Source: Paractinoplanes aksuensis (GTDB lineage: Bacteria > Actinomycetota > Actinomycetes > Mycobacteriales > Micromonosporaceae). From it: a stretch of 64,000 nt of DNA. A program made the position numbers and the translations under genes. The first letter of the stretch is position 1. Each line of letters opens with the position of its first letter. This document shows, piece by piece, positions 46,475 to 54,682 of the stretch. A model generated the notes under the pieces. It was not told the DNA's origin and did not search any database. It was given only the letters and a program-made list of their open reading frames with translations. The stretch spans positions 1-64,000 of the forward strand of contig NZ_JAMYJR010000021.1 in NCBI RefSeq assembly GCF_024137025.1, in the 5' to 3' direction.

Positions 46475-46640
46475 TGATCCACGTCACCTGGAGTGACCGA
46501 GAATCGACCGAACGGCCACCTGGATCCGCCACTTCATTGATCGTCCACACCGGACGGTACGCAAAGCGTCGGCCGCTCTCCCGTAGCACCCGAAACCGAC
46601 GAGTAACTACCCTTTCATCGTCGTTCCGTGGGGAGGCTGT

Positions 46641-49259
46641 GTGACCGCGACCGAGGTCAGGGCACCGCAAGACTCGGTGCCAAAACCGGCCAAACGCCGT
46701 AGCAGCATCATTACCGCCCTCAAAGGGCACGTCGACCTGTTCCTGAACGCGGGTTCGCTGATCGCCACCACGGCGATCACCTCGCTGTTCGGGTTCGCGT
46801 TCTGGTGGGTCGCGGCCCGCTCGGCCGCGCCCGAGGCGGTGGGCCAGGCGTCGGCCGCGGTGTCCGCGATGACGCTGATCGGCACCATCGGCATGTTCGG
46901 CATGGGCACCATGCTGATCTCCGACCTGTCGCAGCTGCGCGGGCCCAAGTGGCAGCTGATCACCACCTGTCTGCTCGTGGCCGGCAGCGCCGCGACGGTC
47001 GGCGGCATCATCTATGTGATCGTCGCCCAGCTGTGGATCCCGGGACTGCAAGAGGCGCTCGGCGGCACCTTCGGCACCGTCCTGCTGGTCATCGGCATCG
47101 CGCTCAACGCGGTCACCCTGGTGCTCGACGAAGCCCTGGTCGGCCTGCTCAAGGGCCCGCTGCAGCTGATGCGCAACGCCTGGTTCTCGGTGATCAAGCT
47201 GGTGCTGCTGGGCGGTCTCGCCCTCGCGCCGATCACCCTGACCGGCAACGAGCTGCTGCTGACCTGGGTCGCCGGCATCGTGCTGTCGACCGCCATCCTC
47301 AGCGGGGCGCTGCGCCGCCGCCGGATCATCGACTCCGCCCGCCCCAACTTCTCGCTGCTCAAGGGACGCGGCAAGTCGACCTTCGACCACAACCTGCTCA
47401 ACCTGGCGACCTACCTGCCGCGCGCGGCGCTGCCGCTGGTCGTCACCGCGGTGCTGTCGGCCGAGGCCAATGCTTCGTTCTACACCGCTTTCATGGTGCT
47501 GTCGTTCCTCGCGATGGTGCCCGGCAACGTGGCCCTCACGCTGTTCGCGGTGGCCAGCGGCGACAAGCGGGCGCTGACCTCCAAGGTGCGGGTCGGCCTG
47601 ATGATCTGCCTCGGCGGCGGCCTGCCGGTCGCGGCGGCAGTTTTCTTCCTGGCCAACCCGATCATGTCGGTCTTCGGCGCCCAGTACGCCGAGACGGCCG
47701 GCGAAGCGCTGCGCCTGCTCGCGCTGACGTATGTGCCGTTCGTCTTCCTGCACTTCTTCATGGCGATCAGCCGCGTGCAGGACAAGGTGCGCGGGGCCGG
47801 CATCTTCGCCCTCTTCGCGGGCATGGCCGAGCTGGGCGCGGCCTGGTACGGCGGCAGCACCGGCGGCCTGAACGACCTGGTGATGTGGGTCGTCATCGTG
47901 ATGGGCGTCGAGGCCGTGCTGGTCGCGCCGGTCGTGCTGCGGGTCGTCTTCGGTGGCGCCAAGCGCCGGGGCGACAGCGCGAACACCACTGTCATGACGC
48001 TGCACGAGCGGGCCTGGCTGCCGCTCGAATACATCCGGACCGTGGGCCCGCTGTACGGCGTGACCGTGGACGGCGTACGCCGGGCTCTGATCGGTCTGCA
48101 CGCGGCCGACCCCAAGCACCGGGCCGTCTCGAGGCTCGACCGCGTCGGCGCCCGCTGGGAACACCTGGACGGGGCCGAGTTCGCCCAGTTCGTGCATCGC
48201 GCCGTGCAGGACTCCGGTGACTGGTCGCTCGACATGGACGGCATGACCCGCAAGCTGCAGTCCGAACCGCGTGGGGTGCACCCGATCCGCATCCTCGTGG
48301 GCGCCGGCTACATCGCGATCAAGGTCTCCCACGCGTACGGCGATGCCGGCCCGGTTAATTCCCTGGTGCACGAGCTGGTGCTCGCGGCCAGCCAGGGCCG
48401 GGCCGCGGTGATCCCGCCGCTCGAGCGGAACCGGATGGCGCTGCCCAAGGCCTGGTGGAAGCAGTTCGGCACCAAGCCGGCGCGCTGGAAGGAGGGCATC
48501 AGCTTCGCCCGCCCGCCGGAGCCCGAAGAGACCCGCATGCGCAAGTGGCAGCCCAACCTGACGGTCCGCTCGGCCCGCTCGGCGACGACGCTCAAGCTGA
48601 TGCGCAAGTGGCGCGACGAGTACTCGCCCGGCGTGACCACGTCGGCCATCACGTTCGCGGCCTTCACCGCGGCGCTGCACCAGCTGGGCCTCAAGCCCGA
48701 CACCGGCGGCGCGACGTTCCTGGCCGACGGCCGGCGGTTCCTCGACAAGGACACCCGTATCGACAGCAACTTCTGCATGGGGCCCTACCTGTCCCCGCAG
48801 AACATGATGGACCCGGCGTCGATCAACACGACGATCAAGAACGAGCTGGCCACCGGCCGCATCCTCACCATGATGGTGCTGCGCGAGGGCAAGATCGCTC
48901 TGGACGGCGCGCCCGGCATGCCCGACCCCTACCCGTCGGAGCTGGCCATCCCGCCCCGGCCCCGGCTGACCTTCAGCAACCAGGGCCGCCACGACCTGCT
49001 CGGCGACCTGCCGTGGTCGGTCGGCCCGGAATGGCGGGTCAACCTGAGCGTGCCCACGCTCAACAGCCCCGAGGGCGTCACGCTGACCACCAGCGAGATG
49101 AACGGCGTGCTCCACCTCGAGGCGACGTTCCACGGGTCGACCTTCGACCCCAACCTGATCTCGAAGGCGATGGAAATGGTCCTGACCGACCCGTCGGCCC
49201 TGATCATGAACGCGCGGCGAGAGTCCGAGGAGCAGACCCAGATCCTGTCCCGGGTCTAG
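46641..49259 (+). CDS. Polysaccharide flippase fused to condensation-like acyltransferase
   Basis: 872 residues in two parts. Residues about 30-450 form a MATE/Wzx-like flippase with 12 or more membrane helices (LFLNAGSLIATTAITSLFGFAFWW at the start). Residues about 465-870 look like a CoA-dependent acyltransferase/condensation fold: His564-x-x-x-Asp568 (SHAYGDAG, the HHxxxDG-type catalytic motif), SITFAAFTAALHQLGL-like core, and WRVNLSVP near the end. The fusion suggests lipid-linked glycan export combined with acylation. It has a GTG start after GGGGAGG and a clean terminator. The acyltransferase identity rests on motif and length only. Confidence 0.8.
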   Translation: MTATEVRAPQDSVPKPAKRRSSIITALKGHVDLFLNAGSLIATTAITSLFGFAFWWVAARSAAPEAVGQASAAVSAMTLIGTIGMFGMGTMLISDLSQLRGPKWQLITTCLLVAGSAATVGGIIYVIVAQLWIPGLQEALGGTFGTVLLVIGIALNAVTLVLDEALVGLLKGPLQLMRNAWFSVIKLVLLGGLALAPITLTGNELLLTWVAGIVLSTAILSGALRRRRIIDSARPNFSLLKGRGKSTFDHNLLNLATYLPRAALPLVVTAVLSAEANASFYTAFMVLSFLAMVPGNVALTLFAVASGDKRALTSKVRVGLMICLGGGLPVAAAVFFLANPIMSVFGAQYAETAGEALRLLALTYVPFVFLHFFMAISRVQDKVRGAGIFALFAGMAELGAAWYGGSTGGLNDLVMWVVIVMGVEAVLVAPVVLRVVFGGAKRRGDSANTTVMTLHERAWLPLEYIRTVGPLYGVTVDGVRRALIGLHAADPKHRAVSRLDRVGARWEHLDGAEFAQFVHRAVQDSGDWSLDMDGMTRKLQSEPRGVHPIRILVGAGYIAIKVSHAYGDAGPVNSLVHELVLAASQGRAAVIPPLERNRMALPKAWWKQFGTKPARWKEGISFARPPEPEETRMRKWQPNLTVRSARSATTLKLMRKWRDEYSPGVTTSAITFAAFTAALHQLGLKPDTGGATFLADGRRFLDKDTRIDSNFCMGPYLSPQNMMDPASINTTIKNELATGRILTMMVLREGKIALDGAPGMPDPYPSELAIPPRPRLTFSNQGRHDLLGDLPWSVGPEWRVNLSVPTLNSPEGVTLTTSEMNGVLHLEATFHGSTFDPNLISKAMEMVLTDPSALIMNARRESEEQTQILSRV

Positions 49260-49264
49260 TACGA

Positions 49265-49293
49265 GCGCCCGGCCAGTTCCGCTGGCCGGGCGC
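49265..49293 (+). terminator. Hairpin terminator
   Basis: GCGCCCGGCCAG pairs perfectly with CTGGCCGGGCGC around a 5-base loop, 6 bases after the fusion gene's stop codon. Confidence 0.9.
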
Positions 49294-49403
49294 ATCTATG
49301 TCCGGCGAGAACCGCCGCTCGTGTCTGGCGGGCCTGAGCCGCCCCCGTTCATCCGGCGCCAACGACGGCGCCCGCTATGTTCCGACGCTGAGCGCCGCTT
49401 GCC

Positions 49404-49934
49404 TCAGCTCCGCACGGGGAGCATCAGGGTGGTGTCTTTCGATCGCGCGGGCGCGTTCCGCCCGCAATCGGTGAAGCTGATCCGGGCCTCGAGCAGGGCC
49501 CACGAGCTGCGGTCGTAATCGGCCTCGACCCGGAACGCGGTGAAGTCGGTCTTGCCCTTACCGAGCGAGTCGCCGCGCGAGAACGAGGTGAACTCACGGT
49601 CGCCCGGGTAGTTGATCTCGACCTCGTCGTCGCCCCAGACCACGACCTTGACGTCACAGATGCGACGGTCGGTCTTCCAGCGCACCCGCACCCACTGCGA
49701 CTCCCCCGAGTCGATCGGCTGGAGCATGCGGGTGACCGGGCGGGGGCCCTTCGGCGCCTTGCGGGCCTCGGCAGCGGTGGTGCTGTTGCTTCCGCTCACG
49801 GCGCTTGTGCTTCCGCCCACGGAGCTTGTGCTCGCGACTTCGGCCTGGGCCGGCGTTGCCGAAGCTACGGACACCATGGTCATCGCCGCGGCCAAGGCGG
49901 TGGCGGCAGATCCGAATCGGCGGCCCGTTCTCAT
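49404..49934 (-). CDS. Secreted beta-rich protein, paralog of the next gene
   Basis: 176 residues. A signal peptide ends near PAQA (about residue 31), followed by a Ser/Thr-rich spacer and a domain of about 115 residues: VRVRWKTDRRICDVKVVVWG, then INYPGDREFTSFSRGDSLGKGKTDFTAF and ARISFTDCG. Two cysteines probably form a disulfide. The same domain recurs in the gene at 50.4-51.2 kb. Its role is unknown; a binding or wall function is possible. GGAGGG stands 9 bases before the ATG. Confidence 0.8.
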   Translation of the reverse strand: MRTGRRFGSAATALAAAMTMVSVASATPAQAEVASTSSVGGSTSAVSGSNSTTAAEARKAPKGPRPVTRMLQPIDSGESQWVRVRWKTDRRICDVKVVVWGDDEVEINYPGDREFTSFSRGDSLGKGKTDFTAFRVEADYDRSSWALLEARISFTDCGRNAPARSKDTTLMLPVRS

Positions 49935-50405: not shown

Positions 50406-51155
50406 TTACCGCGTCGACGGGCTGGTCGACGGCGACGGGTTCACGGTCGAGGGCTGCGTGCGGTGGTCGCCCCAGTTGCCGCCGTTGTTGTGGCCGCCGT
50501 TGTTGTTGCCACCATTGCTGTGGCCACCGTTGTTGTTGCCACCATTGCTGTGGCCACCGTTGCTGTGGCCACCGTTGCTGTGGCCACCGTTGCTGTGGCC
50601 ACCGTTGTTGCCGCCGTTGCTGTGGCCGCCATTCGGGCGACCGTCGCCGGGACGGCCGTCACCGGGGCGGCCGTCGCCCGGGCGGCCCGGGCCGGTGTGG
50701 TGGCCGTTGTTGCGCAGGACCGGCAGGGAGAGCGCGAACGACTTGTACTGGGTGCGGTCGCGGCGTCCGCACAGGTCGTACGAGATCGTGGCGCGCAGGC
50801 GGGCGACGCCGGCCCGGTCGTAGTCGGGGTTCACCTCGAACGCGGTGAAGTCCGTGCGGCCCGGACGCAGCGTGTCGCCGCGGGTGAAGGACGTGAAGCG
50901 CTTGCGGCCCGGGTAGTCGACGTCCACGTCGCGACCGCCGCTGACCCGCACCTCGACGTCGCAGATGGTCCGGTCCGTACGCCAATTGATCTTTACCCAG
51001 CTGTCCGCGTTGGCCCGGACCGCGCCGAGCCAGTTGGAGACCGGCTGGGGTCCACGGACGGGAGCGGCCGAAGCAGGCGCCGCTGCCATGCCGGCCATGC
51101 CGACCGCCGCGGTAGCCATGGCCACGAGCGCTCCGACGCGCCGATTGTTCTTCAT
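50406..51155 (-). CDS. Secreted protein with HSNGG repeat tail
   Basis: 249 residues: signal peptide ending near ASA (about 30), the same domain as the 49.4-kb protein (VKINWRTDRTICDVEVRVSG, then VDYPGRKRFTSFTRGDTLRPGRTDFTAF), and a C-terminal repeat region of about 85 residues. The repeats are GRPGDGRPGDGRPGDG, then many NGGHSNGG or NGGNN units. The tail is encoded by DNA repeats (about 50460-50700). GGAGG lies 7 bases before ATG, fixing this start. The His/Asn-rich tail could bind metal or tether to the surface. Confidence 0.82.
   Translation of the reverse strand: MKNNRRVGALVAMATAAVGMAGMAAAPASAAPVRGPQPVSNWLGAVRANADSWVKINWRTDRTICDVEVRVSGGRDVDVDYPGRKRFTSFTRGDTLRPGRTDFTAFEVNPDYDRAGVARLRATISYDLCGRRDRTQYKSFALSLPVLRNNGHHTGPGRPGDGRPGDGRPGDGRPNGGHSNGGNNGGHSNGGHSNGGHSNGGHSNGGNNNGGHSNGGNNNGGHNNGGNWGDHRTQPSTVNPSPSTSPSTR
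50460..50700. repeat. Coding repeats for the Gly/His/Asn/Ser tail
   Basis: In-frame copies of 15-18-base units (CCACCGTTGCTGTGG, with CCATTGCTGTGGCC and GTTGTTGCC variants) encode the NGGHS repeats of the secreted protein. Next to them, GGCGGCCGTCACCGG-type units encode GDGRP. Confidence 0.9.
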
Positions 51156-51981
51156 CGAAATTCCTCCAGTAACTGATGGTTGCCCGGCGGAGTGGCCAAC
51201 CGACAAAACGGACACTATGTCGACCAACTGATCCTGACCCGACTTAGCTGCGCCTTTCCGGAGGAATTCCTCTTTCTTGTACTAAATGTTTAGCCCGGAT
51301 CGACCGAAAAGCCGATGCCGATCCCCCGTTCGTCAATCCGAATAAACGTACTGGTTCTTCGCATTAACAAGATCGAAATTGCGCTTACCAGTACGTATAG
51401 ACAATTCCAAGAATATTGAGCGGCGGTGGAGGCGAAGGTGTCACGCGAGTAGCTCGGCCGGGCGGGCCGGCCGGACCGCCACCGAGCCGCTCGCCTCGAT
51501 CGACCCGACATGACCGTCGACTGCCCCGGGTCACCGCGACCGGAGTGTCGCCACGCCGACCGCAGCGCGGCCAGGAAGCGCAGCGGCGCGGGCAGCGCGA
51601 CTTGAGGATCGAGTTGTCGAGCATCTCGAACAGGAACACCGCGCGATCGCACCGCCCGGCACCACATGTTCCGCGGCGTGCACAGGGGCGGTGCGGGGAT
51701 TGCGCGTGCAGGCCCGGTCGAGGTCGAAGCAGATCCGCACGCGCCGCTCGACAGCCACAAAACATGGCCCGCCCACCCTTGGGGGCGGCCCTGGGGTCAG
51801 TGTGACGGGATTTGCTGATCTTTGTTGGTGGCCGAAGGCGCGGCTGTGGACGGGAGGAGATTGTGGATAACTCCTGGGGTGGATCCAGCCCTTGCGGGAG
51901 TGGTGTTTCGGGCCGACTCGACCTCCCCCGGCGTTCGTATGCAGGACGATGAGAGACGCTCGATCAGGATGGGAGTCAGTG
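51156..51981. other. Gene-less stretch, possibly with decayed coding sequence
   Basis: About 825 bases between the HSNGG-repeat gene and the DUF2750 gene. The left 270 bases are unusually AT-rich for this genome and probably carry the promoter of the secreted-protein gene. The right part has open frames on both strands (51290-51800) but none with a start, domain or consistent frame. Phrases such as FEMLDNSILKSR on minus could be remnants of an older gene. Confidence 0.4.
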
Positions 51982-53387: not shown

Positions 53388-54386
53388 TCAGCGACGCGGG
53401 GTGCCGCCCCAGCGCATCAGGGACGCGCCGACCGACATGCCCCCGCCGAAGCCGGCCATGAGCACGATGTCGCCGTCCTTGAGCGCGCCCTTGCGGGCCG
53501 CCTCGTCCAGCGTGACCGGCACCGAGGCGCTGCCCACGTTGCCGTAGCGGTCGAGCGTCAGGTGGGTGGTGGCCTCGGACAGCCCCGCCTTGTCGACCAG
53601 CTCGGCCAGCATGATGCCGTTGGCCTGGTGCGGCACGAAGTGGGTGACGTCCTCGACGGCGACGTCGGCCCGCTTGAGCAGGGCCTCGAGCGCGGGCGGG
53701 ACACCGATGTTGACGAAGTCGCGGACGCCGCGGCCGTTCATCTTGAAGTAGTGGTCGCCGTTGGCCACGGTCTCGGCCGAGGCCGGCAGCCGGCTGCCGC
53801 CACCGGGCACGTGGATGAGCTCGCTCGCCTCACCGCGCGACACCAGCTCCATGTCGAGGAAGCCGTAGCCGTCGGCCACCTTGCCCACGACCGCCGCGCC
53901 CGCGCCGTCGCCGAACAGAACGGCCGTGCGGCGGTCGCCGAAGTCGAGGATGCGCGAGTAGATGTCGGACGCGATCACCAGCACCTTGGCCGTCGGATTC
54001 ATCGACACCAGGCTGTTGGCCAGCGCGACCCCGAAGACGAAGCCGGCGCAGACGACGTTGATGTCGAAGCAGGCGGCCCCGTTGGCGCCGATCTTGTGCT
54101 GCACCAGCGTGGAGGTCGGCGGTTGCGGAGAGTCACCGGTGGAGGTCGAGACGATGAGGTAGTCGATGTCGACGGCCTCGAGCCCGGCGTTGGCCAGAGC
54201 CTCGCGGGCGGCCTCGGCGGCGAGGTCGGACGCGGCCTCGTGGGGGGCCGCGAAACGACGGGCCTGGATCATCGTCTTGCGGCTGACCCACTCGGGATCA
54301 GCATCCGGCACGAGACGCACCAGGTCGTCGTTGGTGACCACCTCGGCCGGCAGGTACGAGCCGGTACCCAGGATGCCCACGCTCAT
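53388..54386 (-). CDS. 3-oxoacyl-ACP synthase III (KAS III) family protein
   Basis: 332 residues of the FabH/KAS III thiolase fold. The catalytic triad is visible: Cys113 (FDINVVCAGF), His in VPHQANGIML and Asn in YGNVGSASVP. It condenses acyl-CoA with malonyl-ACP, starting fatty acid or polyketide chains. No other fatty-acid gene is adjacent, so it may be a paralog of FabH with special substrate use. The ATG is supported by GGGGGCGAA. It is single, after a promoter region with a dyad. Confidence 0.92.
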   Translation of the reverse strand: MSVGILGTGSYLPAEVVTNDDLVRLVPDADPEWVSRKTMIQARRFAAPHEAASDLAAEAAREALANAGLEAVDIDYLIVSTSTGDSPQPPTSTLVQHKIGANGAACFDINVVCAGFVFGVALANSLVSMNPTAKVLVIASDIYSRILDFGDRRTAVLFGDGAGAAVVGKVADGYGFLDMELVSRGEASELIHVPGGGSRLPASAETVANGDHYFKMNGRGVRDFVNIGVPPALEALLKRADVAVEDVTHFVPHQANGIMLAELVDKAGLSEATTHLTLDRYGNVGSASVPVTLDEAARKGALKDGDIVLMAGFGGGMSVGASLMRWGGTPRR

Positions 54387-54682
54387 TTCGCCCCCACTTT
54401 TGATCGAACTCGCCCACTCCCTGAGGAAAGAGGCTATCGGGTTTAGGCTATGACAGGCAGACAAGATCGGACGACCGGGCGGTCCTCGCCGATAGGCCGA
54501 TCGGCCCACCCGTGAAGCCGCCGGAAACGGGTCGGTAACAAGTGGAGACCAAATACACCTCGGTCGTTCGCTGCGTTGAAGACACAGATACGCAGCGTCA
54601 CCAGTAGTGGGGTATTTCCGGCCCGGGAACGCGGTTTCGGCTTCTTCAGATAGTGAAATCGTTTCGAGGGCGCGCAACAACG
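54387..54682. other. KAS III promoter region with a dyad
   Basis: Contains an inverted repeat CGCTGCGT (54569-54576) and ACGCAGCG (54590-54597) with a 13-base spacer, suitable for a dimeric repressor. No gene is seen. Confidence 0.5.

What the first reader, a model, noticed from the sequence alone, without database searches (positions are those of the whole stretch)
46641..49259. Polysaccharide flippase fused to a condensation-like acyltransferase
One frame of 872 residues joins a 12-helix Wzx/MATE-like flippase to about 400 residues carrying a HxxxD acyltransferase motif (His564, Asp568). The two functions are normally separate: O-acylation of an exported glycan is usually by a separate membrane acyltransferase. 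A fused, probably cytosolic condensation-fold enzyme could acylate the lipid-linked glycan as it is flipped, or use a lipid as acyl donor. No glycosyltransferase is adjacent, so the product is unknown. The gene stands alone with its own start and terminator.
Basis: partly seen in the sequence, partly recalled or inferred. Interest (0 to 1): 0.75.

Follow-up and report, generated by a model that had tools for sequence, protein, structure and literature searches.

The report
Sugar-lipid flippase fused to acyltransferase
One bacterial protein joins a membrane pump of the kind that flips lipid-linked sugars outward to an enzyme fold that normally attaches acyl groups, and its two halves are separate neighbours in sugar-polymer gene clusters of related genera, so it is probably a modify-and-flip machine for a surface polysaccharide.

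Summary
One 872-codon frame (46641-49259, +) encodes a 12-helix MOP/Wzx-type flippase (about residues 1-437), a short linker and a ~415-residue domain with a confident condensation/BAHD/PapA-type fold (pLDDT 82.5; 294 PDB matches at E<=1e-3). No Pfam model matches that domain convincingly. His564 and Asp568 of its HxxxD motif are kept in 19 and 20 of 21 diverse relatives. All 35 public loci found (Actinoplanes and kin) are fused.

New point: in 8 of 200 genomes searched in the family the halves are separate genes 0.3-6.4 kb apart, in loci that all carry polysaccharide genes. Trees of both halves place the fused proteins beside those pairs. The fused gene lies where no glycosyltransferase was found. 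The same genome has a related cluster on another contig (two GT2, GH26, deacetylase, sulfotransferase) without a detected flippase.

Best reading: a flippase with a tethered cytosolic acyltransferase that acylates the lipid-linked repeat unit before export, as MprF does for phospholipids. Activity, donor and acceptor are untested. Against: some species keep only the acyl half; one fused protein lost His564.

The parts
46641..49259 (+). whole fused gene, 872 codons, GTG start, TAG stop
   Evidence: open in 35 of 35 public loci
46641..47951 (+). flippase half (residues 1-437): 12 membrane segments by my grouping, MOP/Wzx type
   Evidence: AlphaFold2 helices; of 13 family members 6 match Polysacc_synt PF01943 and 3 match MatE, the window member itself none; hhalign to Pfam-positive flippases 90%, over 69 columns
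47952..47984 (+). linker (about residues 438-448)
   Evidence: pLDDT under 50 at residues 439-448; variable in alignment A1
47985..49211 (+). condensation/BAHD-fold acyltransferase-like domain
   Evidence: profile match range; pLDDT 82.5, pTM 0.84; Foldseek
48330..48344 (+). HxxxD motif: His564 (48330-48332) to Asp568 (48342-48344)
   Evidence: hhalign sets it on the HHxxxD of this genome's own NRPS C domains, with a weak score
48726..48737 (+). DxRR motif: Asp696, Arg698, Arg699
   Evidence: 20 of 21 rows at each of the three positions
46630..46636 (+). GGGGAGG, likely ribosome-binding site
   Evidence: sequence; similar leaders in close relatives
49263..49296 (+). hairpin after the stop codon, possible terminator without a U tract
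   Evidence: not a consensus intrinsic terminator

Best explanation
A Wzx/MOP-type flippase for a lipid-linked oligosaccharide carries a condensation-fold O-acyltransferase on its cytosolic C-terminus. The enzyme domain puts an acyl group (from an acyl-CoA or carrier-bound thioester) on the repeat unit, and the attached flippase then exports the modified unit for polymerisation. The gene arose by fusion of two neighbouring genes of a polysaccharide cluster and now lies elsewhere; its partners in this genome are most likely the cluster on contig C5. Shown by computation: the fold, the motif, the conserved fusion, split pairs in polysaccharide loci, no flippase detected in the C5 cluster. Inferred: activity, side of the membrane, donor, acceptor, order of acylation and flipping, and the link to C5.
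For: Fold: Foldseek matches are led by condensation-type domains and related acyltransferases, among them the glycolipid acyltransferase PtMAC2p (8jos, 7.9e-14) and PapA5 (1q9j, 4.3e-12). Motif kept in a family down to 25% identity. Split pairs in 8 of 200 genomes of the family searched, 0.3-6.4 kb apart; by tblastn with L077 genes, GH26-like and DUF1616-like genes are in 8 of 8 of these loci, one GT2 in 7, the other GT2 in 6, the deacetylase in 6, and in none of the 35 fused loci or the window. Both trees set the fused proteins next to the split ones. In 7 loci of 6 genomes outside the family, an acyl-family gene lies near a Polysacc_synt flippase in 3 (L104, L107, L109) and beside a GT4, with a Wzy_C protein nearby, in a fourth (L110). 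The own C5 cluster's two GT2s are 71% and 80% identical to those of G028's cluster, and a whole-genome profile search found two flippases of this family, neither on C5. Purifying selection on both halves.
Against: No activity is known for any member. Four same-genus genomes (G143, G158, G176, G196) have acyl-half copies without the attached flippase; each has only a distant flippase relative (28-32%) elsewhere. L084, L085, L086 and the gapped L092 share flanking genes with the window locus, and L084/L085 still show dN/dS 0.31, so the domain persists without this flippase. L040 is fused but has Gly for His564 and a deletion. hhalign to NRPS C domains scores only 6.9%, and Foldseek TM-scores are moderate (0.40-0.57 by query length). 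Foldseek on the full model showed no membrane-half match among its 50 rows, and the domain arrangement is not fixed (pTM 0.51). In G028 the C5-like cluster has its own flippase- and acyl-type genes although a fused gene sits elsewhere, so pairing with C5 is not proven. The co-occurrence test could not be completed.
Confidence: 0.5

Rival explanations
1. The C-terminal domain is a catalytically weak or dead condensation-fold module that serves as a substrate sensor or docking platform for the flippase and its glycosyltransferases.
For: L040 lost His564 and the segment with the NF motif while its flippase half aligns in full; the family has one His where NRPS C domains have HHxxxD.
Against: His and Asp kept in 19 and 20 of 21 diverse members, D696/R698/R699 in 20 of 21; the acyl half evolves under purifying selection. 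PtMAC2p is active with a less complete motif (PMC10619693, abstract).
Confidence: 0.2
2. The domain acylates something other than the flipped glycan, for example a membrane lipid or a metabolite, and the flippase exports that product.
For: The fused gene lies away from glycosyltransferases; acyl-only copies persist at the same locus; in 2 of 7 loci outside the family (L105, and L108 by near-identical neighbours) the acyl-family gene sits between acyl-CoA carboxylase-type genes.
Against: The split genes lie in polysaccharide loci, and the flippase half groups with those loci's flippases.
Confidence: 0.18
3. The domain does another reaction of this fold, such as dehydration or a carrier-protein condensation.
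For: The best structural match is titled a dehydratase (AzeD, 8s6l, 2.5e-14), followed by many NRPS domains.
Against: Acyltransferases of glycolipids and alcohols score nearly as well (8jos, 3fp0); no carrier-protein or NRPS family appeared among the neighbouring genes that I scanned (part of each neighbourhood only).
Confidence: 0.1

Closest known systems
MprF (bifunctional aminoacyl-phospholipid synthase and flippase)
   Same: One protein with a flippase part and a separate domain that makes the modified cargo before translocation (PMC8131360, abstract).
   Different: MprF moves aminoacyl phospholipid; here the membrane part is MOP/Wzx type and the enzyme fold is condensation/BAHD. The comparison is of principle only; two searches returned no MprF-type family.
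PtMAC2p and PapA5 (condensation/BAHD-type acyltransferases)
   Same: Fold match; a catalytic His in an HxxxD-like motif. PtMAC2p acylates a glycolipid, and H158A cuts its activity more than 1,000-fold (PMC10619693, abstract).
   Different: Sequence identity in the structural alignment 12-16%; no flippase attached in those entries.
Wzx flippases of exopolysaccharide clusters, e.g. ImpC of Actinoplanes missouriensis
   Same: Same superfamily by Pfam matches of relatives. The imp cluster is needed for sporangium matrix production (PMC12691653, section 9).
   Different: ImpC is described there with a polysaccharide transport domain only. I made no sequence comparison with ImpC; the own C68 cluster resembles imp in gene content only.
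AT3 (acyltransferase-3) carbohydrate acylases
   Same: Membrane proteins that acylate carbohydrates (PMC9833829, start of abstract in the listing).
   Different: There the membrane domain is the acyltransferase; here the membrane part is a flippase and the enzyme has another, probably cytosolic, fold.

Membership tests
MOP/Wzx polysaccharide flippase | sequence homology to Polysacc_synt/MatE families | tested here: met
   Indirect: the window protein matches no such model, but of 13 homologues 6 match PF01943 (best 5.9e-6) and 3 match MatE; hhalign 90% over 69 columns.
MOP/Wzx polysaccharide flippase | 12-14 transmembrane helices (recalled) | tested here: met
   12 by my grouping of AlphaFold2 helices; hydropathy scan 10
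MOP/Wzx polysaccharide flippase | transport of a lipid-linked oligosaccharide | not testable with these tools
   needs a bench assay
condensation/BAHD/PapA (CoA-dependent acyltransferase) fold | two-lobed condensation fold | tested here: met
   585 PDB matches, 294 at E<=1e-3; the 50 listed are, by title, mainly NRPS condensation-type domains and related acyltransferases
condensation/BAHD/PapA (CoA-dependent acyltransferase) fold | HxxxD motif | tested here: met
   19 (His) and 20 (Asp) of 21 rows
NRPS condensation domain (PF00668) | Pfam match and HHxxxDG motif | tested here: not met
   PF00668 gave 26 matches in the own genome, none at the window gene; motif reads SHAYGDA, one His
BAHD acyltransferase | DFGWG motif (recalled) and Pfam Transferase PF02458 | tested here: not met
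   DFGWG absent from the translation; PF02458 hit 1 of 21 members, E 0.42
MprF | MprF flippase and aminoacyl synthase domains | tested here: not met
   no such Pfam or NCBIfam match at E<=10; likeness is functional only

The most novel reading that the evidence does not exclude
Acylation gates export: the flippase accepts only the unit that its own tethered acyltransferase has just acylated. This would be a polysaccharide counterpart of MprF, built from unrelated parts and encoded away from the cluster it serves, probably for an acylated, perhaps sulfated, surface polymer of sporangium-forming actinomycetes.
Probability: 0.25. Interest if true: 0.75.

Novelty: new variant of a known kind. Interest (0 to 1): 0.55.

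Why it matters
Glycan O-acylation is usually discussed for membrane acyltransferases. A flippase that carries a cytosolic acyltransferase of another fold would place the modification before export and suggest a way to check cargo identity. The work also points to an acyltransferase-like family without a Pfam model, found in polysaccharide loci of several genomes of the same family, order and class, and gives an orphan gene candidate partners on another contig, so that knock-outs and chemistry can be aimed.

Tried and rejected
Assembly error: rejected, 35 of 35 public loci are fused. Ordinary NRPS piece: rejected, no PF00668 match at the gene. Window KASIII (53388-54680) as ortholog of a gene in the split clusters: rejected; those genes are type III PKS-like (L077 scanned) and 24-27% identical to it. 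Own C68 cluster as the gene's home: it has its own flippase, and a profile found no acyl relative in the 35 kb taken. Literature: the listings showed no flippase-acyltransferase fusion of this kind by title and start of abstract; only those term sets in that open-access library were searched.

Full report
What is there. The frame at 46641-49259 (+) is 872 codons with a GTG start preceded by GGGGAGG. The window lies in a 10.0-Mb genome of 99 contigs; its nearest public relatives of this protein, 96% identical, are in Paractinoplanes. The full-length AlphaFold2 model (pLDDT 77.8, pTM 0.51) has helices up to residue 437 that I group into 12 membrane segments, a low-confidence linker, and a mixed alpha/beta domain. 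The placement of the two parts relative to each other is not fixed by this model.

The membrane half. The window protein matches no Pfam or NCBIfam model beyond one chance-level Pfam hit (E 4.7). Of 13 homologues, 6 match Polysacc_synt and 3 MatE, and a profile of the 13 matches Pfam-positive flippases at 90% probability, over 69 columns only. It is a divergent MOP/Wzx flippase.

The second half. Modelled alone from 33 sequences it reaches pLDDT 82.5 and pTM 0.84. Foldseek finds 585 PDB matches, 294 at E<=1e-3; the 50 listed are by title mainly NRPS C, Cy and E domains and related acyltransferases (PtMAC2p, TRI3, PapA5), led by the dehydratase AzeD. TM-scores are moderate (0.40-0.57 by query length, rmsd 6.9-10.4), so only the fold class is claimed. 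In 21 diverse members Pfam gave only single weak hits (best E 0.021), and the profile finds no condensation-type solved structure by sequence. Comparison with a profile of this genome's own NRPS C domains is weak (probability 6.9%, E 0.005), but the alignment places His564 and Asp568 on HHxxxD. His is kept in 19 of 21, Asp in 20 of 21; D696, R698 and R699 each in 20 of 21. The exceptions for His are L040 (Gly) and L086 (Ser; its Asp is missing too); both also lack the NF segment.

Distribution. A scan of public genome contigs gave 35 loci, all fused, in Actinoplanes and near genera. In 200 genomes drawn from the family, 68 had some match; by my count of the table 28 have both halves in one match, 27 of them among the 36 same-genus genomes listed with a match. 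Of the other 9 of those 36, four have acyl-half copies only (G143, G158, G176, G196) and five show only a distant flippase relative (at most 4 candidates per genome were scored). tblastn found no flippase in the fetched loci of the acyl-only copies. In 8 genomes of other genera (G021, G022, G040, G043, G050, G070, G086, G089) the halves are separate genes 0.3-6.4 kb apart; G115 showed the flippase only; more distant pairs occur in G028, G056 and G178, which also have a fused gene.

Split loci. In L077 the neighbours are four GT2s, DUF1616, GH26 and a polysaccharide deacetylase. By tblastn with L077 genes against the 8 split loci, the GH26-like and the DUF1616-like gene are present in 8, one GT2 in 7, the other GT2 in 6, the deacetylase in 6 and the large unassigned protein in 7; none of them is in the window or in the 35 fused loci. 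A type III PKS-like gene (Pfam in L077) has 68-88% identical counterparts in L075, L076 and L081, and in L075 it is followed by an enoyl-CoA hydratase-like gene; a source of an unusual acyl-CoA is a lead only. In 396 genomes drawn from the phylum, 7 including the own one matched the acyl profile. Of 7 loci in the other 6 genomes, three lie near a Polysacc_synt flippase (L104, L107, L109), one beside a GT4 with a Wzy_C protein nearby (L110), one beside a GH16 (L106), and two between acyl-CoA carboxylase-type genes (L105 scanned, L108 by near-identical neighbours).

History. In quick maximum-likelihood trees the fused flippases form one group (22 rows, SH-aLRT 95) and the split ones another (9 rows, 84). 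In the acyl tree the 22 fused and 4 acyl-only rows form one group (100), and the acyl-only rows nest inside it. The simplest reading is one fusion followed by repeated loss of the flippase half. Long branches make the order provisional. dN/dS is 0.15-0.40 (flippase) and 0.09-0.33 (acyl) in 8 fused pairs, and 0.31 for the acyl-only pair L084/L085.

Where its partners may be. GT2 and GT4 profiles found nothing among genes called in the window and the 35 loci; on the comparison set of called genes, which includes source sequences of theirs, they gave 26 and 8 hits. The neighbours of the fused gene are conserved but are not glycan-assembly genes: WYL regulator and CorA in 34 of 35 loci, GH20 in 34 of 35. 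In the same genome, contig C5 (about 81-92 kb) has a polysaccharide deacetylase, a GH26, a beta-helix protein, a protein with 16 hydrophobic segments and no Pfam match (possibly the polymerase), two GT2s and a sulfotransferase. The two GT2s are 71% and 80% identical to those of G028's cluster, and one is 69% identical to that of L077. No flippase was found there: a whole-genome profile search gave only the window gene and the C68 gene. In G028 a flippase-type match lies directly beside the GT2, where in C5 the 16-segment gene follows the GT2 after 39 bases by my gene calls. C68 has its own flippase, two GT4s and a glycosidase-like gene. This recalls the imp cluster of A. missouriensis, needed for the sporangium matrix (PMC12691653: passages, and section 9), by gene content only. 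Four further clusters of that species are described in PMC13390465 (abstract, passages, section 7, part 1 of section 17); I compared no sequences with them.

How it likely works. Condensation-fold acyltransferases use acyl-CoA or carrier thioesters, which are cytosolic (recalled). An even number of membrane segments and a basic stretch after the last one (9 K/R against 5 D/E in 60 residues) suggest that the domain is cytosolic too. So the acyl group would be added before flipping. MprF is the known precedent for synthesis and flipping in one chain (PMC8131360, abstract). The persistence of acyl-only copies says that coupling is not obligatory for the enzyme; L040 says that an intact motif is not obligatory for keeping the flippase.

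Limits. The co-occurrence test of the C5 cluster with the fused gene could not be completed (last attempt). No activity, donor, acceptor or polymer is known. Verdict: a real, conserved architecture, for which I saw no description in the searches made; a new variant of a known kind.

Noticed in passing
L120 (own contig C5), 3355-14411: Polysaccharide cluster with sulfotransferase, GH26, deacetylase and beta-helix protein but no flippase found; may make a sulfated polymer.
   Followed up: partly
L094 (own contig C68), 7665-16565: Glycosidase-like gene, two GT4s, a flippase and a 987-residue protein without Pfam match, reminiscent of the imp sporangium-matrix cluster by gene content.
   Followed up: partly
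L075 6888-8828; L076 15022-16110; L077 15811-16884; L081 6631-7698: Type III polyketide synthase-like gene near the split polysaccharide loci, with an enoyl-CoA hydratase-like gene after it in L075.
   Followed up: partly
window 49404-49934 and 50406-51227 (-): Two related small proteins without Pfam match, with tblastn matches in 28 and 29 of 35 fused loci (they may cross-match); the second has a Gly/His/Asn-rich repeat tail.
   Followed up: no
L105 7889-9112 and L108 8043-9278: Acyl-family gene only 61% identical between two genomes whose neighbouring genes are mostly 82-99% identical (two at 51 and 72%): fast change or replacement.
   Followed up: no
L083 8834-10522: Second acyl-only copy in genome G176, in a different neighbourhood, with about 150 extra N-terminal residues in my mechanical gene call.
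   Followed up: no
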